This document shows, in pieces, positions 9,933 through 36,429 of a stretch of DNA of 40,410 bases. Numbering within the stretch: position 1 is the stretch's first letter; each line of letters opens with the position of its first letter. The notes under the pieces are model-generated. The model searched no databases. It saw only the letters and a list, made by a program, of their open reading frames with translations, and had not been told where the DNA came from. Origin of the DNA: a virus; IMG/VR virus record IMGVR_UViG_3300035183_001251, positions 1-40,410 of that record, one strand, 5' to 3'. The position numbers and the translations under genes were made by a program.

Positions 9933-10015
9933 ATTAAGTTCCTTCTTGTAAGTGAAAATAGCGCTCAAACCATTAATACATTGATAGTTTAACTACTTTC
10001 ATGAGGTATATAGAT

Positions 10016-11701
10016 ATGAGAATTATTAGACTTAATAGAAGTGCTTCAGGCGGTCAATACACTAACGTTACAGTTAATCAACCAGTTACAACAACTGTAA
10101 CACAAGCTACTGGTAATTTAGAAGTTATCCCTTATGGACAAGCTGTTAATATAGCTAACCTATATGCTAATAAAACTGGCGAGACATTTAACACACCTAT
10201 AACTGTACCTGCTCCAGTAAACAATAATAATGCTGCAACTAGAAAGTTTTTAAATGATACAATTACCCCTCTTACAAGTATAGATGTTACTCCTATCCTA
10301 AACCAGTATGCCAATAAAAGTGGTGATGTATTTACAGGTCCTATTTCTAGAATCCCTGATCCTTATGATTTAAATAATGCTCCAACTAATCCTAATACAG
10401 CTATTACAAATAAATTTGCTAATGATAAACTCACTCAAGCAGCGTCATCAGCATCTGTTAGTAATTCGGTAGAAACTGGTCAGATATATGAGATATTTGC
10501 TACATCAACGCCACCTGGATACTTAAAGTGTAATGGTGCTAATGTATCTAAAACAACTTATAGTGACTTGTATAATGCTATTGGTGATCAATTTGCACCA
10601 CTTACTACAGGCGGTGGTATCCCATGGCAATCTCAATGTGGTTTTAACTCATCTACACAAAATATTATAACAGATTGGTCGACTACTAACAGTTTAGCAT
10701 TTGGTGTTAGTAACTCAGTTTCCCTTGTGACTAAGAACTATGTTTACGTACTAGGTGGATATAATGGAAGTGGTGCTATAAATACCATCCAAAGAGCTTC
10801 TTTTAATAGCAATGGTGATTTAACATCTGGTTGGAGTAACGTAGGAGCTATACCAGTAGTTATGTACAGTATGGGTTATGCGGCAACTAAAGGTAGATAT
10901 TATTTAATAGGTGGATATAGTGGTTCTAACTCTCTATCATCTGTATATTCTTCTCCTATAAATAGCGATGGAACATTAGGAACATTTAGAACAGAGACAT
11001 CATTGCCAGCTGAAAGAGCTGATGCTGTATGTTTTGTTATTAAGAATAAACTATATGTAGCAGGCGGGGGTGATACTAACACTGTCTATCAAGCTATTAT
11101 AAATAATGATGGTACACTAACAAACTGGGCTACTTTACCTAATTTTCCTATTAATTTTAGCAGCGGGACACCTTTACTTATTAAAGATAGAATATATATT
11201 TTTGGTATTCGTATTCCTTCTTCCTCCAATAGTACTTCAAAAATCTATTATGCTACATATGACTCTAATGGAAATATAGATTCATGGACTTATGTCTCAG
11301 ATATGCCAAATAACATATATGGATCAGCAATAGTATGCACTGATAATTATGTATTTAGTATTGGAGGTAAAGATGCACAAGCTAGTCAATTTACAAATGC
11401 AACATATCGTGCACCTATTTTAGCTGATGGCAGTATAGGTACTTGGACACAAATAAGCAATGGTCCTGTAATAGCAAGTTATGCTCAAGTAGCTATAGCT
11501 GGTGATAAGATCTATTTTATAGGTGGATATTATTATTCTAATAATAGCGCTAATATTTTTAATACTGTCTACTCAGCCTCTTTCACCTCTGGTATCACTG
11601 ATTATACCCCATACTACACAGATCAATCAAATACATCTTCTACATTTAACTTACCAAATTTACCTTCAACACCCTATAGCGCGTATTATATTAAAACTTA
11701 A
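10016..11701 (+). CDS. Tail fibre: collar domain interrupted by a six-bladed kelch-like propeller (copy 1)
   Basis: The start is taken as ATG 10016, with GAGGT eight bases upstream; ATG 10001 is in frame but has no site. The 561-residue protein begins MRIIRLNRS, like the neighbour's MRVTKYSPN. Residues about 50-140 hold two fibre-shaft repeats of the GDTMTGPL type (KTGETFNTPI, KSGDVFTGPI). Residues about 155-195 hold the first half of a phage tail-collar domain (PPGYLKCNG, SKTTYSDLYNAIGD). Six kelch-like blades follow, marked by YVYVLGGY, RYYLIGGY, KLYVAGGG, RIYIFGI, YVFSIGG and KIYFIGGY. The last 25 residues return to collar sequence (TFNLPNLP, YYIKT). Collar-type fibres form trimers at the virion tip, and the propeller is the probable receptor-binding head. 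A hairpin follows, then a close paralogue. Confidence 0.82.
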   Translation: MRIIRLNRSASGGQYTNVTVNQPVTTTVTQATGNLEVIPYGQAVNIANLYANKTGETFNTPITVPAPVNNNNAATRKFLNDTITPLTSIDVTPILNQYANKSGDVFTGPISRIPDPYDLNNAPTNPNTAITNKFANDKLTQAASSASVSNSVETGQIYEIFATSTPPGYLKCNGANVSKTTYSDLYNAIGDQFAPLTTGGGIPWQSQCGFNSSTQNIITDWSTTNSLAFGVSNSVSLVTKNYVYVLGGYNGSGAINTIQRASFNSNGDLTSGWSNVGAIPVVMYSMGYAATKGRYYLIGGYSGSNSLSSVYSSPINSDGTLGTFRTETSLPAERADAVCFVIKNKLYVAGGGDTNTVYQAIINNDGTLTNWATLPNFPINFSSGTPLLIKDRIYIFGIRIPSSSNSTSKIYYATYDSNGNIDSWTYVSDMPNNIYGSAIVCTDNYVFSIGGKDAQASQFTNATYRAPILADGSIGTWTQISNGPVIASYAQVAIAGDKIYFIGGYYYSNNSANIFNTVYSASFTSGITDYTPYYTDQSNTSSTFNLPNLPSTPYSAYYIKT

Positions 11702-11713
11702 ATCTTCATAACC

Positions 11714-11740
11714 CACCATAGCCTACAGAAGGCTATGGTG
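11714..11740 (+). terminator. Hairpin after tail-fibre copy 1
   Basis: Perfect 11-bp arms lie at 11714-11724 and 11730-11740 with a 5-base loop, twelve bases after the stop. There is no U-run. The hairpin separates the two tandem fibre genes, so the second may have its own promoter in 11741-11823. Confidence 0.65.
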
Positions 11741-11823
11741 ACTTAATCCAACCCCTAACACAACTTAATACTCTAAACTGAATTTTTTGATCAACATAAC
11801 CTATCTCTTAAGGAGTATTACTC

Positions 11824-13530
11824 ATGCGTGTAACTAAATATTCACCAAATAGTAGCAATAATAATAACCAAATAACTGTAACTGGTAGCCTTATCCTTAA
11901 TGTTGATCCAACACAAAATAATCAACTTGCTAATAAAATCTCTGTTGATAATTTATTTACAAATAAGATTTTAAAAGCAGGTGATACATTAACATCACCT
12001 TCTACTCAAACTACAGCTCCTACACAAGATAATCATAGCATCAGAAAAATAGATGTATCAAATAGAATCACACAAGCTGATAGTGATCCTAATAATCTAA
12101 CAACAACACAGATTGATAATTTATTAAGTGCTAAGATATTAAAGTCTGGTGATACAGCACAAGGGATATTGTCGTATAATGCTAATTATACTGCTAACGA
12201 TAACTTAGCTACTAAGAAAACGATAGATGATTTTCCTGCTCCTACAGGTGGAACTGGTACACCTGTTATAACAGGTACTGTAATCGAATATGGATCTAAT
12301 ATTACCCCAGATGGATATTTAAGGCTTAATGGCGCTGCTGTATCTAAAACAACTTATAGTGATTTATATAACGCTATTGGAGATAATTTTACTCCACAGT
12401 TTAATGAAAGTGCTGGTATCCCATGGCAATCTCAGTGGGGGTTCAACCCATCTACACAGAGTGATATAACTGGGTGGACAAGTAATAATAATTTAACTAC
12501 TGCCACAACTTATGCATCTTCTCTTGTAACTAAAAACTATATCTATATATTAGGAGGATATGGTGTAAATGGTGTTTTAAATACTATCCAAAGAGCCTCT
12601 TTTGATGCTGATGGTAATTTAACTTCATCTTGGAGTAATGTTGGTACTTTACCAGCAGCTATTTATGGCATGGGTTATATAGCAACCAAAGGTAGATTTT
12701 ATTTAATAAGTGGATATAATGATACTTTTTATGTTCCTTCAACCGTTTATTCTGCTCCTATTAATTCAGATGGAACATTAGGTGCATTTAGAACAGAAAC
12801 ATCGTTACCTGATGGAAGATATTTTCATGTATGTTTTGTTATTAAAGATAAGTTATATGCAGTAGGTGGAAATAATTTTAGTAATTCTACTAATACTGTT
12901 TATAGAACCACTATTAACAACGATGGAACATTAAATAATTGGGAAATTCTTCCTAATTTTCCTACTAATTTTATTTTCGGCACTCCTCTAATTATTAAAA
13001 ATAAAATATATATCTTCGGTGTTTATAATAATTATGCTGGTGCTTCAGAAATCTATTATGCTACATATGATTCTAATGGTGATATAGGCTCATGGACTTA
13101 CGTTGGAAATATGCCAAATAACATATATGGTTCAGCAATAGTATGTACTAATAATTATGTATTTAGTATAGGTGGTTATATTGTTAATACTAGTCTTACA
13201 AATGCCGCATATCGCGCACCTATTTTAGCTGATGGTAGTATAGGAGCTTGGACTCAGATAAGTAATGGTCCTTTAACAGCAATTACTGCTCAAACAGTTA
13301 TAGTTGGTAATAAAATATATTATATAGGTGGATGGGGTGGAAATAATATTATTTATATAATTTTTGGCGATATTTTAAATACTGTCTACTCAGCCACTTT
13401 CACCTCTGGTATCACTGATTACACTAACTACTATACAGATCAACCAAATACATCTTCTACGTTTTATTTACCAGATTACTCTTCTAAAAAGGCAGCTAAT
13501 CCAGGTTTATACTACTACATCAAAACTTAA
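11824..13530 (+). CDS. Tail fibre: collar domain interrupted by a six-bladed kelch-like propeller (copy 2)
   Basis: This is a 568-residue paralogue of the preceding fibre. The ribosome site AAGGAG lies about nine bases upstream. Residues 1-140 differ from copy 1 but keep two shaft-type repeats (KAGDTLTSP, KSGDTAQGI). The first collar half is at about 150-195 (GYLRLNGAAVSKTTYSDLYNAIGD). The Cys of KCNG is changed to Leu here. Six kelch-like blades follow (YIYILGGY, RFYLISGY, KLYAVGGN, KIYIFGVY, YVFSIGGY, KIYYIGGW), then the second collar half STFYLPDYSSKK and YYYIKT at the end. The differences from the other copies cluster in loops after each GG strand, where a propeller would contact its receptor. 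It is probably co-displayed with, or an alternative to, the other fibres. Confidence 0.82.
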   Translation: MRVTKYSPNSSNNNNQITVTGSLILNVDPTQNNQLANKISVDNLFTNKILKAGDTLTSPSTQTTAPTQDNHSIRKIDVSNRITQADSDPNNLTTTQIDNLLSAKILKSGDTAQGILSYNANYTANDNLATKKTIDDFPAPTGGTGTPVITGTVIEYGSNITPDGYLRLNGAAVSKTTYSDLYNAIGDNFTPQFNESAGIPWQSQWGFNPSTQSDITGWTSNNNLTTATTYASSLVTKNYIYILGGYGVNGVLNTIQRASFDADGNLTSSWSNVGTLPAAIYGMGYIATKGRFYLISGYNDTFYVPSTVYSAPINSDGTLGAFRTETSLPDGRYFHVCFVIKDKLYAVGGNNFSNSTNTVYRTTINNDGTLNNWEILPNFPTNFIFGTPLIIKNKIYIFGVYNNYAGASEIYYATYDSNGDIGSWTYVGNMPNNIYGSAIVCTNNYVFSIGGYIVNTSLTNAAYRAPILADGSIGAWTQISNGPLTAITAQTVIVGNKIYYIGGWGGNNIIYIIFGDILNTVYSATFTSGITDYTNYYTDQPNTSSTFYLPDYSSKKAANPGLYYYIKT

Positions 13531-13536
13531 TTAAAT

Positions 13537-13572
13537 TAAGCACTATGGGTCTAATATGACCCATAGTGCTTA
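13537..13572. terminator. Bidirectional hairpin terminator between convergent genes
   Basis: Perfect 14-bp arms lie at 13537-13550 and 13559-13572 with an 8-base loop, between the fibre stop at 13530 and the minus-strand stop at 13583. Confidence 0.75.
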
Positions 13573-13582
13573 TACTTACCCA

Positions 13583-16156: not shown

Positions 16157-18625
16157 ATGTTTATAAAGAAAATTATCTTCAGAAACTATAAGCGTTTTCC
16201 CCTATTACAAGCAACTGAAGTAGAGTTTAATTTTGACAAAAAGTTTAATCTCATCATTGGTACTAATGGCTGTGGTAAATCATCACTAATAAAAGAATTA
16301 TCTCCATTTCCAGCTCAAAAGGAAGATTTTTACCCTAATGGCTATAAAGAAATCCATATAGAACATAATAATAAAGACTATATCCTCATTAGCGACTTCA
16401 CTAATAATGAAGCTTCTTACTCATTTATTGTAGACAACACCGAATTAAATAGTAGCCATAATGTAACTACACAAAAAATACTAGTACAAAAGCACTTTAA
16501 TCTAACACAAGACATTTACGATATCCTAATAGGAGTACAGACATTTACCTCTATGTCTGTAACACAGAGGAAAAAACTCTTTAACCAAATATCAGGTACT
16601 AATATTACAGATTTAATTAGTATATACGAAGATACACTTACTCAACAAAAATCCCTACAATCTATGCTTAAAAATACTTCTAACCTTATTCTATCAGAGA
16701 AACAAAAGGTACTTAATGAAAAAGACAAAGAAGAACTAGAAACCCAATATAAGAAAAACGCTTTCTTCATAGAAAAGCTACTATCTATCTACGAGAACTT
16801 AAAATCTATAACAACAGAAAATATCTCACTAAAAGAAGTACAAGAGACTTACCTAAATAAACTTAACCAATATCTAACTTACCTTAAAAAGAACTACATC
16901 ATATCTACCAATAACTACGATATAGATGAAGTCTATGCTTATAATACCTACAAAGAAACCATTAACCAAATATCAGAACTCATAGAAGCTTCTAAAGCTA
17001 AACTACTTCAATATAACTCAAAGATAGAAGCTATAGAAAAAGTATCTAAAGCCAATAAAGAAGAATTATACATAAAACAAGATACCCTTAAAAAGCAACT
17101 AGAATCCTATAAAAACGCTATTAAAACCCTTTATGATAAGTCTATAGTACATGAACTAAAGACATACCTTACAAACACCTTACAGAGCTTTATAGACATT
17201 TTTAATAGCATTAAAGAGCCTTATTATACTAAACAGAACTATGAAGCTACAAGAACTTTAATTGAAGCTATAGACAAAAAAATTAAAGCTATAGATTATG
17301 AAACCAATCAACTACAAGGTAAGAAGAAACACTTATTAGAGCACATTAATGACCCATTAATTACTTGTCCTAAATGTAATTACAAATGGAATATCATTTA
17401 TGATCAATCTAAGGTAGATAAAATAGATAAAGACATTAAACTCCTTAATGAACAAAAACTTAAACTCATAGAGGAACTAAATAAACACAAAAAAGATGAA
17501 GAGCAACTAATAGAGAACTATAACCTTATTAAAAACTACCTTCAGCTTAAAAAACCATTAGAGCCATATTTTAACATACACTTAATAGAACTACAAGAAA
17601 AACTAAAAACTAACCCAATAGAGGCTATATACGTTATTGAACGTATAAACCAAGAACTACTACTACTAGAGAAATACTACAAACTAGAAGAAGAACTACA
17701 AGAGGTAACAACTGCTATTAAACTACTAGAATCTTCTACTGAAAATACACTACTAGAGCTTAAAACTCAATACAACGAAGAACTTAATCGCTATAAGGAA
17801 TATATACATAAAAAGCAACAAGAGCAACTTAACTACAAACAACTACAAGAATCTAGAGCTATATGGTTAAAGCTAAAAAGATACCAAGAAGACATGTCAA
17901 ATAGCCTATCATTATTAAAAGAAAACATCTCTTCTTACTTCTTTAATGAAATTAAAAAATACATAGAATCTGAGCTTACAAGGCTTAATCTAACTAACAT
18001 AGAAATTAAGAATAAACTCAATGTCAATGATTCAGTTATATCAGTTATAGCCCAATATGAAAAAAATATTAAAGAGCTACAAGATAAACTTAAAGTCTAT
18101 GATGCTATACTAGAAGTCATTAACCCAAAATCAGGTCTTATAGGTAAGTTTATAGCTACATTTATTAATAACTTCATAGAGGCTATTAATTCTTCTATAG
18201 AGGAGATATGGAGTTATTCATTTAAAGTAGTACCTTATGACATAGAGGTAGATGAAAAATTTGACTATCGCTTTAAAGTAATGGTACAAGATAGAGTTAT
18301 CTCTAATGATATCACTAAGACTAGTTCTGGTATGAGAGAGATTATAGACTTATCGTTTAAGATAGGGTTAATGAAGTATTTAGGGTTGTATGATTATCCT
18401 TTATATCTAGATGAGTTTGGGATAAGGTTAGATGAGCAACATCGCTCTAAGATGTATAGTGTTGTGTTTAACTTTATCTCTAGTGATGAGTATAGTCAGA
18501 TATTTATGATTACACATACTGATACATCTTTTTCTAATATTAAAAATGCTGAACTATATGTATTAGATGACTTAAATATTAGGTTTAAAGAGAAGACAGA
18601 GAAAATGAGGATTAAGTATGATTAA
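16157..18625 (+). CDS. SMC-type ATPase of the Rad50/SbcC/T4 gp46 family
   Basis: The 822-residue protein shows the complete plan of a recombination exonuclease ATPase. The N-terminal Walker A is GTNGCGKSS at 35-43, within FNLIIGTNGCGKSSL. Long Lys/Glu-rich coiled coils run from about 150 to 400 and 410 to 640, interrupted at the hinge by the zinc-hook motif CPKC at 404-407. The ABC signature is SSGMREI at about 722-728, and Walker B with the D-loop is YLDEFGIRLDEQHR near 748-761. In the family it pairs with an Mre11/SbcD/gp47 nuclease to process DNA ends; no such nuclease gene is in this window. The C-terminus overlaps the next gene by eight bases, so the kelch protein is translationally coupled to it. 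Size is between T4 gp46 (about 560) and bacterial SbcC (about 1050). Confidence 0.88.
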   Translation: MFIKKIIFRNYKRFPLLQATEVEFNFDKKFNLIIGTNGCGKSSLIKELSPFPAQKEDFYPNGYKEIHIEHNNKDYILISDFTNNEASYSFIVDNTELNSSHNVTTQKILVQKHFNLTQDIYDILIGVQTFTSMSVTQRKKLFNQISGTNITDLISIYEDTLTQQKSLQSMLKNTSNLILSEKQKVLNEKDKEELETQYKKNAFFIEKLLSIYENLKSITTENISLKEVQETYLNKLNQYLTYLKKNYIISTNNYDIDEVYAYNTYKETINQISELIEASKAKLLQYNSKIEAIEKVSKANKEELYIKQDTLKKQLESYKNAIKTLYDKSIVHELKTYLTNTLQSFIDIFNSIKEPYYTKQNYEATRTLIEAIDKKIKAIDYETNQLQGKKKHLLEHINDPLITCPKCNYKWNIIYDQSKVDKIDKDIKLLNEQKLKLIEELNKHKKDEEQLIENYNLIKNYLQLKKPLEPYFNIHLIELQEKLKTNPIEAIYVIERINQELLLLEKYYKLEEELQEVTTAIKLLESSTENTLLELKTQYNEELNRYKEYIHKKQQEQLNYKQLQESRAIWLKLKRYQEDMSNSLSLLKENISSYFFNEIKKYIESELTRLNLTNIEIKNKLNVNDSVISVIAQYEKNIKELQDKLKVYDAILEVINPKSGLIGKFIATFINNFIEAINSSIEEIWSYSFKVVPYDIEVDEKFDYRFKVMVQDRVISNDITKTSSGMREIIDLSFKIGLMKYLGLYDYPLYLDEFGIRLDEQHRSKMYSVVFNFISSDEYSQIFMITHTDTSFSNIKNAELYVLDDLNIRFKEKTEKMRIKYD

Positions 18626-19517
18626 GCATGGAAGTATATTAGATAGCTCTATAGTAGAGAATAATGGATATGTTTACTTCATTGGTGGAAATAAGGGTAA
18701 TTACATTACAAGAGTAGCTACTAGTGATTTTATTTCTTACTTTAACGATTATAATGAACTAGAGGATGAAATAGTAGCAGAATTTAAAAAAAATATTACT
18801 TTAACCTCTAGTGTAGCTCATGGTAAGTATATATACATTATAGGTGGTGCGTATATTGATAAAGCTTCAGATAGCGATTATATCTATGATATAGAGAATA
18901 AAACATTAAGAAAACTTAATCATAAGCATCCAGGTGAACCATGTCGTATGAACCTATATAAGGTAAGACATGGTAATGATTACTTTTTATATTCCTTTAC
19001 TGGATTTAACTATTACCATAATTATAAGGTTTATTACACTAAGATTTTAGATGGAGAATTAGATAAATGGCGTAAAGGGATAATGGAGATTAAGTATATT
19101 AGAGGAAGTATAGTACATTATAACTACGTAACTAATGTCTTTGAGCTATATGGTGGTAAAGATTCCCTTAATAATGCTGTAGCTTTATATAGAGAGACCA
19201 ATGAACCATTTGTTGAAGTTTTTCATGCTAGTGATTTAGAGATAGGTCCTATAGCTGATAGTTTTTATTCTGTTTATAGGGATGGATTTATTATAGCTGG
19301 TGGAGTATTTGGAAAAAATAAAAGAACCAGTATCATATACTACATAAAAAGGAATGAATATACAGGAGAGAGTGAATACATCCATATAGGTAATTTAAAA
19401 GAGCCACTATCAGACTTAAATGCTCTTTTAATAGATGACACGTTATATGTTTTATCTGGATATAACGATGATGGTTTAGCTGTAGAGAATTTAGAGAGTA
19501 TCAGGATTAATGTTTAG
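18618..19517 (+). CDS. Free-standing kelch-type beta-propeller protein
   Basis: The 299 residues read as one six-bladed propeller with no shaft or collar part. Blade strands are YVYFIGGN, YIYIIGGA, YFLYSFTG, FELYGGKD, GFIIAGGV and LYVLSGYN. It lacks a signal peptide and the C-terminal LPD...YIKT ending of the fibre paralogues, so it is probably an intracellular or separately assembled protein. The start codon lies inside the last codons of the Rad50-like gene (ATG 18618, upstream stop ends at 18625), and GAGGA precedes it. Kelch propellers usually bind other proteins. Here it could bind the ATPase, be an adaptor or chaperone for the fibre propellers, or be a decoy. None of these is shown by the sequence. 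Confidence 0.75.
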   Translation: MIKHGSILDSSIVENNGYVYFIGGNKGNYITRVATSDFISYFNDYNELEDEIVAEFKKNITLTSSVAHGKYIYIIGGAYIDKASDSDYIYDIENKTLRKLNHKHPGEPCRMNLYKVRHGNDYFLYSFTGFNYYHNYKVYYTKILDGELDKWRKGIMEIKYIRGSIVHYNYVTNVFELYGGKDSLNNAVALYRETNEPFVEVFHASDLEIGPIADSFYSVYRDGFIIAGGVFGKNKRTSIIYYIKRNEYTGESEYIHIGNLKEPLSDLNALLIDDTLYVLSGYNDDGLAVENLESIRINV

Positions 19518-27806: not shown

Positions 27807-30128
27807 ATGGCAACACAATGGTTTTTGGACTACTATATCCCTAATGAAAACTTAACTACATCTTTTAATAAAGACAAATGGCAAATTATATTCTTACAGC
27901 ATAATGCCTTTTATGTAGATAATTTTACTTTAACTTACCTTAGTACTACACTAGTAGAAGATGTTGATTACATCTTTATACTACCTTATAGAGCAGCTAC
28001 AAGAATAATTGGTAAGCCTATATATGCTGGTTTATTAGTAGATAAGAAGTATGAATATACAAACCTAAAAGCAACCTATAAACCAGTTAATCCAGATTTA
28101 GAAATAGATAGAAATATTCTAATTAATAAAATTAGTAGTGATATAGATAATATCAACCTTAGAGCATTAGATGAACTTATTGAAGGTATACAAGACTTTC
28201 CTTATCAACATGGTTACCCTGATTACGTTAATTACGATAGTAGCGTTGTTTATATTAATAAGCTCAATGAACTATATACTAATATATCAGCTACTTCAGC
28301 TACAGATGATAATAAAATCATTAATAAATTATCTACACTAATCTCACAACAAGCAACAATAGCTAATACTAATAACTATGTTAAAAAAGCAGGAGACACT
28401 ATGCTTGGTCCCCTGCTTCTTAACTACACACCACAAAACCCAAATGACGCAGTTAATAAATCTTGGATAGATAATCTAACAAATACTTACCAAGCTAATA
28501 TTAGTACACAAAATCTTGTTAATAGAACAAATGATACCCTTAATACGCCACTTACTTTATCAAGACAACCTGTAGCTAATACAGAAATAGCAACAAAAAA
28601 GTACATAGATGATGCTATTAGCAGCATAACAGCATATGACCAATATCCAACTGGTACATTACTTAGAGTTAATGAAAATACAAACATACCTGGATATTTA
28701 ACTTGTAATGGAGCTAAAGTCTCTAAAACAACATATGCTAATTTATATAGCGTTATAGGTGATAAGTTTGATCCAACGCAAGCACTAGGTGATGGTCAAC
28801 CTTGGGTATTTCAATCTGACTTTAATTCTTACTATATACCAGGTAACGTATATAACTTTTTTGCTAATAACTACAACATATCAGTGAAAAATACATTATT
28901 CCCAAATGCAGCTAATAATATCATTAGTAGTTCAATAGTCTATTACTTACACTCATACCACCTTATGGCTGTTACCAAAAATAAGATTTATCTCTATTTT
29001 GAATATCGTAATACAGTAAATAACAATAAGCTAGTATCTTCTCCATATGTTGTTACAATTGATAATAATGGTGCAATTTTATCCTCTAATTTTATTTCAC
29101 CAACATTTAACAATAACAAAATTGTCTACTTTGATCTATTTTATTGGAATAATAATGCTTATATAACAAACATTAAAACATGTGCTACCCCTATATCCGG
29201 ACAAACTAATTATTTCGATGCTTCTACTATTGATTCCACAGCAGCTAATAACGTATATAAAACCACTATACTTACAAATGGCGATATAAGCTTTAATAAC
29301 TTAACACCTGTTACAATCAACACTACAACTAAGTTTAATATCTATAATTCCACACAACTTTTAAATAAATACATATTCCATTCTAATAGCGATAGTAATG
29401 GTGTATATACAACTATTTTTAAGTATATTAATGATACTACCTTTAATTTAGTTGAAGGTAATGGTCTAGCAACTAGTCCTTTTGATAGCATTAATAATGA
29501 ATACTCATATTTCTTTAGAATGAAAGATAAAATCTATGCTATAGGAAAAAAAACTAAAAATATATATATGTCGACTATACTTAGTAATGGATATATATCT
29601 ACACCTGTTTATACTAATATGTCTCTTAGTTATCTTTTAAGTATTGGTGATATTAACTATTTTAACATGATTACATTTGAAAACAAAGCTTATTGTTTTA
29701 CATTCGATTTTTATTATTTTACTGAACTTTTTATAATTGAATTAAGTTTTGATATACAAGGATCTATTACAAATATAAAATTAAAAGAAATATTATATTT
29801 AGATTCAATTATTAATAATTTTATAACAAATTATTCTGATGGCATTTATTATTTAGATAGTGCATTTATTAGTAATATTTTAATAATTAAAAATAAATTG
29901 TATTTGTTTTTCTATTCTAATATAATAAATTCTGATTATAATTCATTAGCTGAGTATATACCATTTGTATTAACATATGATATAGAAGGTGGGTTAGTTG
30001 ATTATGTTGATTTTTCTGATTTAGGTACAAGTGTTTACCATATACAACAGAATCTAGATGAAAAAGACAAATTTTACTTACCTAATTATCCTGTAGTTAA
30101 TGGTGTAAAAACTATAATTAAAATTTAA
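27807..30128 (+). CDS. Large tail fibre with collar domain interrupted by a diverged insert
   Basis: The 773-residue protein has AGGGAAAGGA upstream. Residues 1-100 form an N-terminal domain that resembles that of the fibre at 30220 (here VEDVDYIFILPYRAATR; there PNVDYVFKCIHLAATR), probably for docking to the baseplate. Residues about 190-290 carry two shaft-type repeats (KKAGDTMLGPLLL, RTNDTLNTPLTL, each ending in a K-x-(Y/W)-I-D step). The first collar half is at about 294-325 (PGYLTCNGAKVSKTTYANLYSVIGD). The last 30 residues return to collar sequence (KFYLPNYP, TIIKI). The 400 residues between are beta-rich with repeated K-x-K-I-Y and T-I-L-S/T-N-G segments. This looks like a heavily diverged propeller in which the GG doublets are lost. 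The DNA of the second half is very AT-rich. Likely role: receptor binding. Confidence 0.78.
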   Translation: MATQWFLDYYIPNENLTTSFNKDKWQIIFLQHNAFYVDNFTLTYLSTTLVEDVDYIFILPYRAATRIIGKPIYAGLLVDKKYEYTNLKATYKPVNPDLEIDRNILINKISSDIDNINLRALDELIEGIQDFPYQHGYPDYVNYDSSVVYINKLNELYTNISATSATDDNKIINKLSTLISQQATIANTNNYVKKAGDTMLGPLLLNYTPQNPNDAVNKSWIDNLTNTYQANISTQNLVNRTNDTLNTPLTLSRQPVANTEIATKKYIDDAISSITAYDQYPTGTLLRVNENTNIPGYLTCNGAKVSKTTYANLYSVIGDKFDPTQALGDGQPWVFQSDFNSYYIPGNVYNFFANNYNISVKNTLFPNAANNIISSSIVYYLHSYHLMAVTKNKIYLYFEYRNTVNNNKLVSSPYVVTIDNNGAILSSNFISPTFNNNKIVYFDLFYWNNNAYITNIKTCATPISGQTNYFDASTIDSTAANNVYKTTILTNGDISFNNLTPVTINTTTKFNIYNSTQLLNKYIFHSNSDSNGVYTTIFKYINDTTFNLVEGNGLATSPFDSINNEYSYFFRMKDKIYAIGKKTKNIYMSTILSNGYISTPVYTNMSLSYLLSIGDINYFNMITFENKAYCFTFDFYYFTELFIIELSFDIQGSITNIKLKEILYLDSIINNFITNYSDGIYYLDSAFISNILIIKNKLYLFFYSNIINSDYNSLAEYIPFVLTYDIEGGLVDYVDFSDLGTSVYHIQQNLDEKDKFYLPNYPVVNGVKTIIKI

Positions 30129-30136
30129 TTTACCAA

Positions 30137-30172
30137 CATCTTGCTCCAGGTGTAATATCCTGGAGCAAGATG
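30137..30172 (+). terminator. Hairpin after the 773-residue fibre gene
   Basis: Perfect 14-bp arms lie at 30137-30150 and 30159-30172 with an 8-base loop, just after the stop at 30128. No strong U-run follows. Confidence 0.72.
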
Positions 30173-30219
30173 CTATAAATTTTGATCCTTTGAATTTATA
30201 AGCTAAATAGGAGTAATAT

Positions 30220-32349
30220 ATGCCTTACCCATTAGATCTAGTAGGTAATGCACCTACTAATCTTATTACTAATGAACTACATGTCTCTACAGAACAAAAT
30301 ATTAATAACCACTACTATATCTTCCCAGAATACATAAGTTTTTACAAAGATTCACTTGTAGTTAGTGTTTATAATGGTTCTACATGGACTACATTAACTC
30401 CTAATGTAGATTATGTCTTTAAATGCATACATCTTGCTGCTACTAGAAAAACTAGTAGAGAACTATATGGCTTTATTGAACTTATTAACCCTACACCTAA
30501 TCAGACTATATCATTAACTTACCAAACTCTTGGTGGTAGTATTCAGCCTAATGTTAATGACTTAATTAACATTATTATAGATAAGTATAAAGATATACCT
30601 ATCTATATACTAGATGTTCTAACTACTGATTTTGATCCAAATGTACTAGTATCTATCCCTGATTATAATGATTACCCTAATACAAAAGGTGAATTAGAGG
30701 TAACTGAAAAACTCCATGATATAGCTAATAAATTAGCTACTGGATACACTAATATCTCTAACTTATTTAGAAGCTATATAAAACCTACAATAACACAAAA
30801 TATAACTAATGTTGACTTTTCAGGTTATGTCAATAGAGGTGGTGATCAATTAAATAACCCTTTTAATGTTACTGTATTTCCAGCTAACCAAAACAATATT
30901 GTCAATAAAAGCTATGTAGAAAATGCTTTTAATGTAATTACTACAGCATATAATAACCTACTTAATACATATAACAATAAGCTTAGTAAGCTTAATCCAG
31001 TAGCTAATAATCCCTTATATCTATCTATAGTTGATACTGCTAATACAAATACAGCTTTAACTAAAGACTATGTTGATACTACAGTCTCTCCTTCATTAAT
31101 AACTAACCTAAATATACCAGTTGGAACAATTATTCAATCAGTGGCAGATAATACACCACCTGGATACTTAAGGTGTAATGGTGCAGCTGTATCTAAAACG
31201 ACTTATAGTGATTTATATAATGTTATTGGAGATGCATATGCACCACTTATTACAGGTGGTGGTATTCCATGGCAGTCTCAATATTGGTTTAACCAATCAA
31301 TACAAAACGATATAACTGGATGGACGAACACTAATAGTTTAATAACTGCTACAATTTTTACAGCTTCTCTTGTGACTAAGAACTATATTTATATTTTAGG
31401 TGGATATAATGGAAGTACTGCTATAAATACTATTCAAAGAGCTTCTTTTGATAGTAATGGGAATTTAACTTCCACTTGGAGTAATGTAGGAACTCTACCA
31501 GTAGCTATGCGTGGTATGGGTTATGTAACAAATAAAGGTAGATTTTATGTAATAGGTGGGTATTATGGTTCTTTATATGATGTATCTATTGTATATTCTG
31601 CTCCTATAAATAACGACGGAACATTAGGTATATTTAGAGCAGAAACAACGTTACCTGATGATTTATTTTATCCTGTATGTTTTGTTATTAAAGATAAGTT
31701 ATATGTAGTAGGTGGATATGGTAACAGCGGTGATTCAAACATTGTTTATCAAACCACCATAAACAATGATGGTGGATTAAATAATTGGGTTACTTTACCT
31801 AATTTTCCTATAAGTTTTAGTTATGGGAAATCTTTGATAATTAAGGATAGAGTATACATTTTTGGACCCAAAGATGATAATGGACCAGGAATTTATTATA
31901 CTAAATATAATTCTAACGGTAATATAAGTACATGGAATTATTACATGAAAATGCCAAATAACATATTTAATTCAGCAATAATATGCACCAATAATTATGT
32001 ATTTAGTATAGGTGGTTTTAACACATATGATAGAAATTATACAGATTCTTCATACTGCGCACCTATTTTATCTGATGGTAATATAGGACCTTGGACTCAA
32101 ATAAACAATGGTCCTATTATAGCAGGTGATGCTCAACTAGTTATAGTAGGTAATAAAATTTACTTTATAGGTGGATATAATTATCAAAATGGTCATTTAA
32201 ATACTGTTTACTCAGCTACCTTTACTTCTGGTATCACTGATTACACTCCTTATTATACTGATCAGCAATATATTGATCCTAACAACTTTTACTTACCTGA
32301 CTATTATCCTGATTATAAATCAGTTGAAAATTACTACATTAAATACTAG
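30220..32349 (+). CDS. Tail fibre: collar domain interrupted by a six-bladed kelch-like propeller (copy 3)
   Basis: The 709-residue protein has TAGGAG seven bases upstream. Residues 1-110 form the same kind of N-terminal domain as the 773-residue fibre. Residues 110-290 are an Asn/Thr-rich stem with shaft-type repeats (RGGDQLNNPFNV; KSYVEN; KDYVDT). The first collar half lies at about 312-345 (PPGYLRCNGAAVSKTTYSDLYNVIGD). Six blades follow (YIYILGGY, RFYVIGGY, KLYVVGGY, RVYIFGPK, YVFSIGGF, KIYFIGGY) and the collar resumes with NFYLPDYYPD and YYIKY. The propeller closely matches those at 10016, 11824 and 32376, while the N-terminal part matches a different fibre. The gene is therefore a hybrid of two module families. 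Confidence 0.82.
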   Translation: MPYPLDLVGNAPTNLITNELHVSTEQNINNHYYIFPEYISFYKDSLVVSVYNGSTWTTLTPNVDYVFKCIHLAATRKTSRELYGFIELINPTPNQTISLTYQTLGGSIQPNVNDLINIIIDKYKDIPIYILDVLTTDFDPNVLVSIPDYNDYPNTKGELEVTEKLHDIANKLATGYTNISNLFRSYIKPTITQNITNVDFSGYVNRGGDQLNNPFNVTVFPANQNNIVNKSYVENAFNVITTAYNNLLNTYNNKLSKLNPVANNPLYLSIVDTANTNTALTKDYVDTTVSPSLITNLNIPVGTIIQSVADNTPPGYLRCNGAAVSKTTYSDLYNVIGDAYAPLITGGGIPWQSQYWFNQSIQNDITGWTNTNSLITATIFTASLVTKNYIYILGGYNGSTAINTIQRASFDSNGNLTSTWSNVGTLPVAMRGMGYVTNKGRFYVIGGYYGSLYDVSIVYSAPINNDGTLGIFRAETTLPDDLFYPVCFVIKDKLYVVGGYGNSGDSNIVYQTTINNDGGLNNWVTLPNFPISFSYGKSLIIKDRVYIFGPKDDNGPGIYYTKYNSNGNISTWNYYMKMPNNIFNSAIICTNNYVFSIGGFNTYDRNYTDSSYCAPILSDGNIGPWTQINNGPIIAGDAQLVIVGNKIYFIGGYNYQNGHLNTVYSATFTSGITDYTPYYTDQQYIDPNNFYLPDYYPDYKSVENYYIKY

Positions 32350-32375
32350 GTTTCATTTTTTCAAGGAGAATTTAA

Positions 32376-33809
32376 ATGCCGGTTTTAGATGTTCAAAAGC
32401 TAACCTCTGATCCTGGTGTATACGCACCTAATACCCTTTATTTAATAGGACCTACAAATTCACCTAATGAACTACAAATTGCATTATCTTCTAATGACGG
32501 TAGTATAGTTAGACGCACTATTACAAGAGACGAAGTACAAAATTTAATTAGTACAAATACGTCTTTTGTTGGTAATGCACCTATAGGAACAGTTATTAAA
32601 TCATTATCTCCTATTACACCGTCTGGATATTTAAAATGTAATGGTACTGTTGTATCTAAAACAATTTATAGCGATTTATATAACATTATTGGAGATATAT
32701 ATGCACCACTTACTACAAGTGGTGGTGCACCATGGCAATCTCAATATGGATTTAACCCATCTACGCAGAGTGATATAACAGATTGGACAAGCAGTAATAG
32801 TTTAATAACTAATACTTTCTATATGATTCCTTTTGTGACTAAGAATTATATTTATGTATTAGGAGGATATACTGGAGGTGGTGCTATAGACACCATCCAA
32901 AGAGCTTCTTTTGATGCTAATGGTAATTTAATATCTACTTGGAGCAATGTAGGGACTCTACCAGTAGCTATGTATGGTATGGGATATGTTGCAGCTAAAG
33001 GAAGAATTTATTTAATAGGTGGAGCTGACGGTATTTATGCTCTTTCATCTGTATATTCTGCTCCTATAAATAGTGATGGTACATTAGGTGTATTTAGAAC
33101 AGAAACACCATTACCTGGTGTAAGACAATCACCCGTATGTTTTGTCATTAAAAATAAGTTATATGCAGTAGGTGGTTGGACAGGTGGTGCTTCTACTAGT
33201 ACAATTTATAGAACTACTATTAATAATGATGGTGTATTGAGTGACTGGGAAACTCTTCCTAACTTTCCTACTAATTTTTATAATGGTAGTCTTTTACTTA
33301 TTAGAGACAGAATATATATTTTTGGGGTTTATAATGGTGCTAATTCAAAAATTTATTACACTACATTTGACTCTAATGGTAATATAGGATCATGGATTTC
33401 TATTGTAAATATGCCAAATAACATATATGGTTCAGCAATAGTATGTACTGATAATTATGTGTTTAGTATAGGTGGTTATGATTTATCTAATGCTCAATAT
33501 ACAAATACCACATATCGAGCAGCTATATTAGCTGATGGTAGTATAGGATCTTGGACTCAAATAAGTAATGCTCCTATTGCAGCTATGATTTATAATCAAT
33601 CAGTTATAGCAGGTAATAGGATATATTTTATCGGTGGATTTAATGGTAGTAGTTTTTTGAATAGTATTTATTCAGCAACTTTTACTTCTGGTATCACTGA
33701 TTATACCCCTTATTATAACGATCAACAAAATATCGATTCTAATAAGTTCTATTTACCTGATTATCAGTCTAGCGCTTTACTTGGTGAGAACTTTTACATT
33801 AAATACTAA
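32376..33809 (+). CDS. Tail fibre: short N-terminus, collar domain interrupted by a kelch-like propeller (copy 4)
   Basis: The 477-residue protein has AAGGAG seven bases upstream. Residues 1-60 (MPVLDVQKLTSDPGVYAPNT onward) are over half identical to the start of the protein at 34140, a different fibre type. There are no shaft repeats; the first collar half begins at about residue 80 (PSGYLKCNGTVVSKTIYSDLYNIIGD). Six blades follow (YIYVLGGY, RIYLIGGA, KLYAVGGW, RIYIFGVY, YVFSIGGY, RIYFIGGF), then the closing collar piece KFYLPDY and FYIKY. It probably attaches at the same site as the product of 34140 but with a propeller head. Confidence 0.82.
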   Translation: MPVLDVQKLTSDPGVYAPNTLYLIGPTNSPNELQIALSSNDGSIVRRTITRDEVQNLISTNTSFVGNAPIGTVIKSLSPITPSGYLKCNGTVVSKTIYSDLYNIIGDIYAPLTTSGGAPWQSQYGFNPSTQSDITDWTSSNSLITNTFYMIPFVTKNYIYVLGGYTGGGAIDTIQRASFDANGNLISTWSNVGTLPVAMYGMGYVAAKGRIYLIGGADGIYALSSVYSAPINSDGTLGVFRTETPLPGVRQSPVCFVIKNKLYAVGGWTGGASTSTIYRTTINNDGVLSDWETLPNFPTNFYNGSLLLIRDRIYIFGVYNGANSKIYYTTFDSNGNIGSWISIVNMPNNIYGSAIVCTDNYVFSIGGYDLSNAQYTNTTYRAAILADGSIGSWTQISNAPIAAMIYNQSVIAGNRIYFIGGFNGSSFLNSIYSATFTSGITDYTPYYNDQQNIDSNKFYLPDYQSSALLGENFYIKY

Positions 33810-33835
33810 AACTTTTTTCTACTAGGAGGGTAAAA

Positions 33836-34114
33836 ATGGTAGACATTTATGCGTTAGCTAAAAAAATGTACAATATTCCACTATCTGAAATTTTAGATGA
33901 ATTATATAAACCACCTTCTGCTCCTCCGGCTATTGAAATAAGTGATAACTCTATAAAGTTTTATAAAGAAGTGGAGTTTAAAGCTCCACAAATATTAAGT
34001 CAAGATTCAGGTATTAAAAGAAGTCAACTAGATGCAGCGGTTAATAATAATACTAATACTAATGGCGGTAGTTGTACTTGTAATGGTTTGAATCTTTCAG
34101 TCTCTGATTGGTAG
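33836..34114 (+). CDS. Small fibre-associated protein ending in a terminal Trp
   Basis: The 92-residue protein has AGGAGGG before its ATG. It has a short helical start, a Pro-rich turn (PPSAPPAIEI), a segment FYKEVEFKAPQILSQDSGIKRSQLDAAV like a one-unit fibre shaft ending in an L-D-A step, and then a Gly/Cys loop (GGSCTCNG). It ends LSVSDW. The next protein also ends in Trp (TVVQW). It is a likely short fibre or fibre-tip subunit in the same operon; nothing more specific can be said. Confidence 0.6.
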   Translation: MVDIYALAKKMYNIPLSEILDELYKPPSAPPAIEISDNSIKFYKEVEFKAPQILSQDSGIKRSQLDAAVNNNTNTNGGSCTCNGLNLSVSDW

Positions 34115-34139
34115 GTTTTTTTCTTAAAGGAGATTCTAA

Positions 34140-34703
34140 ATGGCAGTTTTAGACATTAAAAAATTAACAGCTGATCCTGGAATATATGCACCAAACACTC
34201 TATACTTCATTGCCCCAACAGGATCTCCTAGCGAATTACAAATTATATTATCATCTAACGATGACTCAACCGCAAGACATGTAATTACAAAAGCTGAAGT
34301 GCAAGCTTTAATTACTTCAGCGATGCAAAGTTTTAATTATATCCAATATGCCGCTGATATTACGGTAAGAGATGCTTTAATATTATCATCAAACACAATG
34401 GTATATGTTGCCGATGCAACAGGTGATCCAACTGTTAATTTAGGTGCCGCGCTTTATTTCTATAAAGCAGATTCAAATCAGTTTATTAAAGTAGCTGAAT
34501 ATGAATCGATGGACCTTATGGTTACCTGGAACTCAATCCAAGGTAAACCAACTTCTTCGCCTTCTGCTATTGATACAGCTGTAGCAAATTCGCATGTCCA
34601 TGCTAATAAGACACAACTTGATAAAATTGACCAAGACGCTGATGGTAATCTTACCTATAACGGTAATTACATTAAAGCAGCATTAACAGTTGTTCAATGG
34701 TGA
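34140..34703 (+). CDS. Short tail fibre protein sharing its N-terminus with fibre copy 4
   Basis: The 187-residue protein has AAAGGAG seven bases upstream. Residues 1-60 match the start of the 477-residue fibre (MAVLDIKKLTADPGIYAPNT). Residues about 70-125 hold a beta domain (ALILSSNTMVYVADATGD, AALYFYKA). Residues about 128-187 hold a motif widely seen in phage fibres: W-N-x-I-x-G-K-P, then SPSAIDTAVANSHVHANK, LDKIDQDADGNLTYNG. The end is ALTVVQW. The His-x-His segment in such proteins often binds a metal along the trimer axis. It is probably a trimeric fibre or baseplate spike-type subunit. Confidence 0.75.
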   Translation: MAVLDIKKLTADPGIYAPNTLYFIAPTGSPSELQIILSSNDDSTARHVITKAEVQALITSAMQSFNYIQYAADITVRDALILSSNTMVYVADATGDPTVNLGAALYFYKADSNQFIKVAEYESMDLMVTWNSIQGKPTSSPSAIDTAVANSHVHANKTQLDKIDQDADGNLTYNGNYIKAALTVVQW

Positions 34704-34749
34704 CAATTAAATAAAACCTCATTTAAACTTTCTAATTAGGAAAATAAAA

Positions 34750-34968
34750 ATGGCAGATGAAGCTGATTTAGCATTTGATGAGCAAGAAGCTAATATTAAA
34801 TTAGCTATTGCTAATAGTAAAAAAGAGAGTATTAAATTAAAGCCTATAGGTGAATGCCATTATTGTGGTGAACCTTTTACAGGTAACTTAAATAGATTAT
34901 TCTGTAATCCTAGTTGTGAAAAAGCTTTTGTTAAAGAACAAGAGTTAATGAGACAAAATAGCCTTTAA
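34750..34968 (+). CDS. Small four-cysteine zinc-finger protein
   Basis: The 72-residue protein (TAGGAAAA before the ATG) has an acidic helical start (MADEADLAFDEQEANI) and then a C4 zinc-finger pattern: CHYCGEPF and, after a short loop, FCNPSCEKAF. The first pair resembles the DksA/TraR and phage zn-ribbon small proteins, and the second is like a treble-clef finger. It closes the fibre operon, but a fibre role is unlikely; small DNA- or polymerase-binding regulators have this form. Function not proven. Confidence 0.68.
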   Translation: MADEADLAFDEQEANIKLAIANSKKESIKLKPIGECHYCGEPFTGNLNRLFCNPSCEKAFVKEQELMRQNSL

Positions 34969-34979
34969 CTAAAAAAAAT

Positions 34980-35015
34980 ATCCACCAGGAGCCTAACATG
35001 AGGCTCCTGGTGGAT
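34980..35015. terminator. Bidirectional hairpin terminator between convergent genes
   Basis: Perfect 15-bp arms lie at 34980-34994 and 35001-35015 with a 6-base loop, between the stops at 34968 (plus) and 35026 (minus). An A-run on the left gives a U-run for minus-strand transcripts. Confidence 0.8.
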
Positions 35016-35025
35016 TAAATAACCT

Positions 35026-36429
35026 TTAACCAGCTGTATATCTTGGTTGCTGCATGTATGGAAACATGGGTGGTACATTAGGATTAAAATATCCCATGTT
35101 AGGCATTTGCTGATATGGTTGAAACTGACCATATCCAATAGGTTGTTGGATAGGCACTTGATTAATCATACCAGGTTGTTGTATGGGTACTTGGTTAAAC
35201 TGATTAAATTGATTAACCTGTTGCATATTTGAAGCCATTAACTCTCTTTGCATCCAATATGGAATAGGTGCTTGAGGTTGATATGTTTGCATAGGTTGTT
35301 GATATAAATATGGCTGCTGTATATTAGGTTGCTTAAGAATCTGTAACGGATCTAATGGTTGCTTAGACTGTTGATTACCAGTTTGCTGTGGTTGATTAAC
35401 CATCGGTGTTTGTGGTGTATAGATAGGCTGTTGCATTTGTTGATTAACTGTATTATTTACCTGTACATTTTTGAGATTATCTTCATTGATATTTAACCGA
35501 GATGGACCTATAGAAGTATTACTAGGTTCTTCACTAGTTTCTCTATATTCATCTTGATTAGGGATAAGTCTAATTTCAGTATCTAGATCGTATAGATCTT
35601 GCATGATATTTACCCAATCTGTATTTAGAGGTTCTATTACTTTACTGCCTTTACTATTAAGATCTGTATTAATATACTCAATATACTTATTAATAGTAGA
35701 AGCTACAAGGTAACTTGTCTTAAGTAGGATAGTTAGATATCTAAAGCGTTTATTTTCTGTTTGTTCCCAATAGTCTTCATCTAGGTTACCAGTAAAGATA
35801 TGCTCATGAATATTCTTTAAGTTCTCCATATTACGCTTACTTATTGGGTATTTATATAGCCTATACTCTTTATTTTCTAAGGCATTAACGATATCTTTAT
35901 ATAAGTTAAATTTTACAAATCCCACAGCTGAAGCATATTTAAATTTACTATTAGAGTTCTTGTTAAGAATAAAGTCTACGATAAATCCTTCTTCATGCTC
36001 TTTTATAGCTCTTTTAATGATATTAGCAAGATCTTCAGCTAGCTTAATATTAACCTCATTTAATGAGGAAAATAGCTTAATGAGATTTACATTCTTAATA
36101 AGGGTCATATCTCTAGGTTCTGAAGCTATTTCAATGATTTTGTTAAATAGCTCACTAATTTTTAAGTTTATTTCAACTGTTAGTCTTTTCTTATATGCTA
36201 AGAAGAAACTAGATTCTGGTTTAACGAAATTCTCATTTAAAGGATGCATAATCATTCTGCCATTAGGATGTTTTAGATTATGCTTATATGGCAGTGTTAC
36301 ATATTTACCATTGACTTTGAATTCACCAATCTCATTATTAGTTTCAACAATGATGTCCTTATCTGGATCATACTTTAATCCAGCATACTCTAATATGCTT
36401 TTGTAGAACTGCTCAATTTTCTCATGCAT
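35026..36429 (-). CDS. Unknown protein with long Pro/Gln-rich C-terminal tail
   Basis: The 467-residue protein starts at ATG 36429 with AAGGGGA upstream. Residues 1-290 are a helical, charged domain with no recognised motif. From about residue 325 to the end the sequence is low in complexity: Pro, Gln, Asn, Met and Tyr dominate, with a repeated (V)PIQQP unit. Such a tail is likely disordered and may mediate multivalent binding or phase separation. It is the last gene of a three-gene minus-strand unit (37938, 36444, 35026) with 14- and 18-base gaps. The long neighbours look structural, so a virion or assembly role is the first guess. Confidence 0.6.
   Translation of the reverse strand: MHEKIEQFYKSILEYAGLKYDPDKDIIVETNNEIGEFKVNGKYVTLPYKHNLKHPNGRMIMHPLNENFVKPESSFFLAYKKRLTVEINLKISELFNKIIEIASEPRDMTLIKNVNLIKLFSSLNEVNIKLAEDLANIIKRAIKEHEEGFIVDFILNKNSNSKFKYASAVGFVKFNLYKDIVNALENKEYRLYKYPISKRNMENLKNIHEHIFTGNLDEDYWEQTENKRFRYLTILLKTSYLVASTINKYIEYINTDLNSKGSKVIEPLNTDWVNIMQDLYDLDTEIRLIPNQDEYRETSEEPSNTSIGPSRLNINEDNLKNVQVNNTVNQQMQQPIYTPQTPMVNQPQQTGNQQSKQPLDPLQILKQPNIQQPYLYQQPMQTYQPQAPIPYWMQRELMASNMQQVNQFNQFNQVPIQQPGMINQVPIQQPIGYGQFQPYQQMPNMGYFNPNVPPMFPYMQQPRYTAG

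What the first reader, a model, noticed from the sequence alone, without database searches (positions are those of the whole stretch)
30220..34703. Mix-and-match N-terminal modules on the fibre family
The propeller module is joined to four different front ends: two distinct short forms with shaft repeats (10016, 11824), a baseplate-type domain shared with the 773-residue fibre (30220), and a 60-residue piece shared with the non-propeller fibre at 34140 (32376). The same attachment ends therefore carry different heads, and the same heads are carried on different attachment sites. This suggests several fibre positions on one virion and active reshuffling.
Basis: seen in the sequence. Interest (0 to 1): 0.6.

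Follow-up and report, generated by a model that had tools for sequence, protein, structure and literature searches.

The report
Jumbo-phage fibres sharing swapped anchors
A giant-phage fragment carries the same six-bladed binding head on two well-defined attachment ends, one native to its lineage and one from a widespread small-phage cassette, plus two short ones: real but old mix-and-match, with the heads differing mainly on the face expected to touch a receptor.

Summary
The module mosaic is real. Four fibres (10016, 11824, 30220, 32376) share a collar plus six-bladed kelch propeller (62-67% identical over the propeller). The front of 30220 is the phiKZ gp131-type anchor, also found on 27807, whose head is not demonstrably this propeller. 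The first 60 residues of 32376 match 34140 (67%), and the match stops there. N- and C-terminal groupings conflict, so whole-gene duplication alone is refuted. "Active" reshuffling is not supported: the heads form a star, show no recombination or conversion signal, and no reshuffling device was found.

Two additions. (1) 34140 belongs to a cassette found in Pseudomonas prophages, Microcystis phages and others: U (small, ends in Trp), A (about 188 aa, N-module, ends in Trp), B (same N-module, variable head, no terminal Trp). Of 21 A clusters, 16 have an adjacent B, 18 A proteins end in Trp, and 16 of 19 upstream genes end in Trp. The window has all three, ordered B-U-A; its B carries a copy of its own A's N-module. 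I infer, untested, a Trp-plug/N-module-socket chain. (2) Differences among heads concentrate in the b-c and d-a loops, the kelch ligand face (dN/dS 0.9-1.6 against 0.22-0.28 elsewhere).

The parts
10016..11701 (+). Short-front fibre: ~30-residue unique N-terminus, K-x-GDT-type shaft repeats, tail-collar domain (about 10478-10594), six-bladed kelch head, C-terminus ...YIKT. Preferred start 10016 (GAGG a few bases upstream); ORF opens at 10001.
11824..13530 (+). Second short-front fibre, same order of modules: shaft, collar (about 12274-12390), kelch head
27807..30128 (+). 773-aa fibre: gp131-type N-domain (27807-28376), shaft repeat, collar (about 28668-28772), head not demonstrably the kelch propeller
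30220..32349 (+). 709-aa fibre: gp131-type N-domain (30220-30789, phrog_2163), shaft (to ~31122), collar (~31123-31239), kelch propeller (~31321-32235), C-terminus ...YIKY
32376..33809 (+). 477-aa fibre (class B of the cassette): A-type N-module (32376-32555), collar (~32586-32702), kelch propeller (~32784-33695), C-terminus ...YIKY; no shaft repeats
33836..34114 (+). 92-aa protein ending ...SVSDW; positional counterpart of the small upstream gene U of the cassette (no sequence homology shown)
34140..34703 (+). 187-aa class A protein (phrog_7946): N-module (34140-34319) shared with 32376, conserved body, C-terminal Trp (...TVVQW); no propeller
34750..34968 (+). 72-aa ORF with a CxxC...CxxxC zinc-ribbon-like motif, last gene before the hairpin at 34980-35015

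Best explanation
The window is a piece of a phiKZ-like jumbo phage whose receptor-binding fibres are built by joining one head type (tail collar plus a six-bladed kelch propeller) to several attachment ends. One anchor is the lineage's own gp131-type N-domain, which in phiKZ sits at the baseplate periphery. Another is the N-module of a small-phage tail-fibre cassette (U-A-B) that looks laterally acquired; the phage copied the N-module of its A gene (34140) in front of a kelch head to make its own B gene (32376). The four heads then diverged mainly on the propeller face formed by the b-c and d-a loops, so each probably recognises a different surface structure while keeping the same scaffold. 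Shown by sequence: module sharing, conflicting groupings, foreign distribution of the cassette, face-biased divergence. Inferred: that the anchors sit at different virion sites, that the heads bind receptors, and that in the cassette the C-terminal Trp of U and A docks into the N-module of the next protein.
For: Module sharing with significance. N-module switch point sharp at residue 60, just before the collar. Propeller model (mean pLDDT mostly 80-90 over residues 140-430) matching kelch domains, VIA Z 30.6, rmsd 2.4, 284 aligned to LZTR1. b-c plus d-a loops differ 0.53 against 0.235 in a-b plus c-d loops, no permutation of 20,000 as extreme; 18 of 19 gap-containing columns lie in b-c loops and the other in a d-a loop; dN/dS 0.92-1.57 on the face against 0.22-0.28 in the rest of the propeller. 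In kelch proteins these loops shape the substrate surface (PMC6720452). gp131-type N-domain in every phiKZ-like relative examined, with several genes of differing C-termini; gp131 at the baseplate periphery (PMC5105663) with a propeller C-terminal domain (PMC4901313). Cassette: 92 of 100 loci carry two N-module genes; non-redundantly 16/21 A clusters have an adjacent B, 18/21 A end in Trp, 16/19 upstream genes end in Trp, 1/52 distinct B C-termini end in Trp. 32376 and 34140 N-modules are sisters, support 0.997, at most 38% identical to any other, whereas elsewhere 48 of 49 B N-modules are nearest to another B.
Against: No virion proteome, binding data or host. The face assignment rests on a predicted model from five sequences, and b-c loops are variable in kelch families generally, so relaxed constraint could explain part of the signal. 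Only 40 kb of a genome that is probably 200 kb or more is in hand. No close relative of the window was found, so acquisition of the cassette is judged from distribution only. In the window the gene order is B-U-A, while elsewhere B always follows A, so the cassette may not work as it does elsewhere.
Confidence: 0.72

Rival explanations
1. Whole-gene duplication followed by divergence and N-terminal truncation only: one gp131-like kelch fibre was copied several times and some copies lost the N-domain, with no joining of unrelated pieces.
For: The two short forms could be truncated copies: they keep shaft, collar and head. Heads are equidistant.
Against: Cannot explain 32376, whose first 60 residues belong to an unrelated family and are sister to those of 34140 with support 0.997.
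Confidence: 0.12
2. Active reshuffling: the fibre genes recombine today, as in invertible or cassette-switching tail-fibre loci, so the population carries many head-anchor combinations.
For: Four head copies in one genome; one 43-nt exact run between 11824 and 32376. The fibre block at 27807-34968 lies between two genes that are direct neighbours in a distant relative, as an exchangeable block would.
Against: No conversion tract (p 0.06-0.78), no clustering of quartet sites (p 0.28), synonymous differences 35-40% over the propeller, no recombinase or reverse transcriptase seen, no strong inverted repeats.
Confidence: 0.08
3. The shared 60-residue piece is an ancient property of the A/B cassette inherited vertically, not a join made in this phage.
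For: 92 of 100 loci with a class A gene carry a second N-module gene.
Against: Within-locus A-B N-modules elsewhere have median identity 0.39 and group by class; the window pair is 67% identical and A-like, with only L039 (0.68) comparable. Concerted evolution of an inherited pair cannot be excluded.
Confidence: 0.25
4. The terminal Trp of U and A caps the protein's own trimer and does not dock into the next protein.
For: No structure; U proteins are otherwise diverse (collagen-like, coiled or glycine-rich ends), so each could end in a similar cap.
Against: Only proteins followed by an N-module protein end in Trp; B, the last in the chain, almost never does (1/52).
Confidence: 0.4

Closest known systems
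phiKZ gp131 and its paralogues (201phi2-1 gp216-220, SPN3US gp168)
   Same: Same N-domain; a clustered set of virion paralogues sharing it with different C-termini; in gp131 the C-terminal domain is a propeller (PMC4901313, PMC5105663).
   Different: phiKZ gp131C is seven-bladed and was not recovered here by sequence or in the VIA list; here the propeller is six-bladed kelch, attached to a collar, and also sits on anchors that are not gp131-type.
Modular receptor-binding proteins with reused N-terminal anchors (Klebsiella phages, G7C, CBA120, phiKp24)
   Same: Conserved attachment ends joined to exchangeable heads; several fibres per virion recycling structural pieces (PMC6872550; PMC9700779).
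   Different: Those use T7-type anchors, T4gp10-like docking domains and depolymerase heads; no T4gp10-like match was listed for the fibres here.
phrog_7946 genes of MD8/F10-like Pseudomonas phages and Microcystis phages
   Same: 34140 is a full-length member; the neighbours U and B have counterparts in the window.
   Different: Order permuted to B-U-A, and B carries an A-like N-module plus a kelch head. In MD8 the U-A-B genes gp24-gp26 are annotated hypothetical.
Kelch proteins of jumbo phages (CBB_552; PhiPA3, PS119XW, Noxifer)
   Same: Kelch propeller in a jumbo-phage protein, in CBB found in the mature virion (PMC5259590).
   Different: Not described there as one head on several anchors.

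Membership tests
phiKZ gp131-type fibre (30220, 27807) | gp131-type N-terminal domain | tested here: met
   30220: phrog_2163 E 7e-19 and tblastn to 201phi2-1, PhiPA3, FLC9. 27807: HMM built without it, E 9e-15.
phiKZ gp131-type fibre (30220, 27807) | Several paralogues sharing the N-domain in a cluster | tested here: met
   27807 and 30220 are neighbours; relatives show the same.
phiKZ gp131-type fibre (30220, 27807) | Seven-bladed propeller C-terminal domain | tested here: inconclusive
   The head shared with 30220 is predicted six-bladed kelch (model of 32376); no gp131C match by sequence; absence from the VIA list is not evidence.
phiKZ gp131-type fibre (30220, 27807) | Location at the baseplate periphery | not testable with these tools
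   Needs virion imaging.
Kelch beta-propeller (heads) | Repeated kelch motifs and propeller fold | tested here: met
   PF24681 E 3e-19 and PF01344 E 6.5e-15 for 32376; VIA Z 30.6.
U-A-B tail cassette (phrog_7946) | A: full-length homologue ending in Trp | tested here: met
   34140 matches phrog_7946 1-186 of 186, E 1e-53; ends ...VVQW.
U-A-B tail cassette (phrog_7946) | U: small adjacent upstream gene ending in Trp | tested here: met
   33836-34114 ends ...VSDW; only it and 34140 end in Trp among the 32 genes listed. Sequence homology to other U genes not shown.
U-A-B tail cassette (phrog_7946) | B: N-module plus variable head, immediately downstream of A | tested here: not met
   32376 has the N-module and a head, but lies upstream of U and A, and its N-module is A-type. 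So the window holds the cassette's parts in a rearranged form, not a standard cassette.
Diversity-generating or invertible fibre locus | Reverse transcriptase or recombinase with repeat arms near the fibres | tested here: inconclusive
   None among the ORFs scanned or the repeats; the window is only a fragment of the genome.

The most novel reading that the evidence does not exclude
The U-A-B cassette is a plug-and-socket fibre-assembly system: the C-terminal Trp of each protein (U, then A) docks into the N-module of the next (A, then B), so any head fused behind an N-module can end the chain. The jumbo phage would have acquired this system and fitted its own kelch head to it by copying its A gene's N-module, giving a second fibre position beside its native gp131-type ones.
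Probability: 0.35. Interest if true: 0.62.

Novelty: new variant of a known kind. Interest (0 to 1): 0.42.

Why it matters
Modular tail fibres are well known, but here one head family sits in a single genome on two anchors of different evolutionary origin. That allows attachment site and receptor recognition to be tested separately. The cassette has a simple terminal-Trp and shared-N-module signature, so it can be recognised in prophages and viruses of several bacterial phyla where its genes are annotated hypothetical, and it suggests a general, checkable rule for how small adaptor proteins and fibres join.

Tried and rejected
Scans of viral contigs for close relatives of the window gave only a distant jumbo contig (L006) and one kelch contig (L012), so junction ages could not be dated against sister phages. 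An AlphaFold model of 27807 was unusable (mean pLDDT 33), and its head could not be tied to the kelch family. I suspected that the propeller is inserted inside the collar domain, because the C-termini end in F-x-LPD-like sequence; joining the two halves raised the Collar score (35.8 to 42.9 and 33.2 to 40.3 bits for two kelch fibres) but hardly the reach of the match, so this is not claimed. Recombination among heads: negative by quartet clustering and by longest shared run. Core-gene adjacency at the first fibre locus (10016-13530) could not be tested because its flanking genes had no usable match in the relatives. A Shine-Dalgarno cause for the terminal TGG was considered and rejected for the window, where a separate GGAG (after 33836) or GGA (after 34140) lies 3' of the stop. 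Pfam on ten long B proteins found almost nothing. A literature search for a C-terminal Trp in tail fibres returned no paper.
Full report
WHAT THE WINDOW IS. The window is a 40,410-bp IMG/VR virus record at 31% GC. It encodes fragments of a multisubunit phage RNA polymerase, a DNA polymerase and a DnaB-like helicase, all with PHROG matches typical of phiKZ-like jumbo phages (the attribution to phiKZ-like phages is my reading of those families and). The DNA polymerase is at most about 33% identical to named phages, the nearest being Burkholderia phage FLC9. No close relative was found in IMG/VR.

THE FIBRES. Four genes (10016, 11824, 30220, 32376) end in a tail-collar domain followed by a kelch-repeat head. 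The heads are 62-67% identical over the propeller. An AlphaFold model of 32376 gives a propeller with mean pLDDT mostly 80-90 over residues 140-430, in which I count six kelch repeats. It aligns with solved kelch domains at Z up to 30.6, rmsd 2.4 over 284 residues. Kelch proteins of other jumbo phages are among the best viral structural matches.

THE FRONT ENDS. The N-domain of 30220 belongs to the phiKZ gp131 family. 27807 carries the same N-domain, shown with a profile built without it (E 9e-15). The phiKZ-like relatives examined have several genes with this N-domain and differing C-termini, as already noted for 201phi2-1 in its annotation. In phiKZ, gp131 lies at the baseplate periphery (PMC5105663) and its C-terminal domain is a propeller (PMC4901313). 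32376 starts with a different 60-residue module, 67% identical to that of 34140; similarity stops at residue 60, about ten residues before the collar. 10016 and 11824 have short N-termini and shaft repeats; only the first ~30 residues are clearly unlike each other. The head of 27807 could not be tied to the propeller family.

N-groupings {27807, 30220} and {32376, 34140} cut across the head grouping {10016, 11824, 30220, 32376}. Whole-gene duplication alone is therefore excluded. The heads themselves are a near-star: 39, 33 and 28 informative sites for the three quartets, unclustered (p = 0.28); no pair has an excess shared run. Propeller synonymous differences are 35-40%. No recombinase, reverse transcriptase or strong inverted repeat was seen. 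So the mosaic is real but not recent, and 'active' reshuffling is not supported.

THE INSERTION SITE. In the distant relative L006 the counterparts of 27469 and of 35026-36429 are direct neighbours about 60 bp apart (coordinates; homology of these two small or low-complexity proteins is my reading of the sequences, while the surrounding genes align). In the window the whole fibre block 27807-34968 lies between them.

THE 34140 FAMILY IS A CASSETTE. 34140 is a full-length member of phrog_7946, found in F10/MD8-like Pseudomonas phages and Microcystis phages, in bacterial contigs from Pseudomonas, Thalassovita, Sphingomonas and Lacihabitans among others, and in many viral contigs. Six phiKZ-like records lack a confident match (one 34-residue partial). 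In 92 of 100 such loci a second gene starts with the same N-module but has a very variable remainder, 62-588 residues in all. Clustering the A proteins at 70% identity leaves 21 clusters: 16 have an adjacent B, 18 A proteins end in Trp, and 16 of 19 upstream genes end in Trp. Only 1 of 52 distinct B C-termini ends in Trp, and no N-module gene lies upstream of A. In the window, 33836 ends in DW and 34140 in QW; no other of the 32 genes listed ends in Trp. The window order is B-U-A. The searches were made with the A gene, so the B counts are not circular, but about half of the loci are F10-like relatives; the cluster counts correct for this.

AN IN-GENOME COPY. The N-modules of 32376 and 34140 are sisters (support 0.997); 32376's is at most 36% identical to any N-module outside the window. 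Elsewhere B N-modules group with B (48 of 49), and within-locus A-B identity has median 0.39, with one other high case, L039 at 0.68. The kelch fibre therefore most likely took its N-module from the neighbouring 34140 gene, or the two have evolved in concert.

HEAD DIVERSIFICATION. Using the model's secondary structure, the b-c and d-a loops differ at 0.53 of pairs against 0.235 for a-b and c-d loops (0 of 20,000 permutations), and all gap-containing columns in the propeller lie in b-c loops or one d-a loop. dN/dS is 0.92-1.57 on this face and 0.22-0.28 in the rest. In KLHL20 the b-c and d-a loops form the substrate-binding surface (PMC6720452). The caveats are the predicted model and the general variability of b-c loops.

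HOW IT MOST LIKELY WORKS. Shown: shared modules, conflicting groupings, lineage-specific anchor distribution, face-biased divergence, terminal Trp pattern. Inferred: the gp131-type anchor puts 30220 and 27807 at the baseplate periphery; the cassette N-module puts 32376 at a second site, reached through U and A; the Trp of U and A plugs into the next N-module; the four heads recognise different surface structures. Host, receptor and virion content are unknown.

RELATION TO WHAT IS KNOWN. Modular fibres with reused anchors are well documented (PMC6872550; PMC9700779), kelch proteins occur in jumbo phages (PMC5259590), and gp131 paralogues are known. New here, as far as the library consulted shows, are the same head on two anchors of different origin in one genome and the U-A-B cassette signature. 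I rate it a new variant of a known kind, interest 0.42.

Noticed in passing
window 18618-19517: A further kelch-repeat protein (299 aa, Kelch_6 E 3e-8) directly after the SbcC-like gene, with no recognised anchor or collar and no match in the phage collection.
   Followed up: partly
L021-L118, L007, L008 and window 33836-34703: Terminal Trp on the small upstream protein and on the 188-aa protein across unrelated phages, with the shared N-module on the following gene.
   Followed up: yes
L052 1763-4685: One viral contig carries two A-B pairs in tandem.
   Followed up: no
window 34750-34968: Unlisted 72-aa ORF with a zinc-ribbon-like CxxC...CxxxC motif at the end of the fibre block; only weak Pfam matches.
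   Followed up: partly
L010 7502-11371 (Pseudomonas phage Viktualia): A kelch protein gene lies just downstream of the DnaB helicase gene, as the window's first kelch fibre pair lies next to its DnaB region; may be coincidence.
   Followed up: no
window 11702-11823, 13531-13582, 30129-30219, 34980-35015: Hairpins separate the fibre genes into units; 30220 to 34968 appears to be one transcription unit (reading of sequence).
   Followed up: partly
window C-termini of 10016, 11824, 27807, 30220, 32376: All five fibres end in a short ...IK(T/Y/I) sequence even where the heads differ.
   Followed up: no
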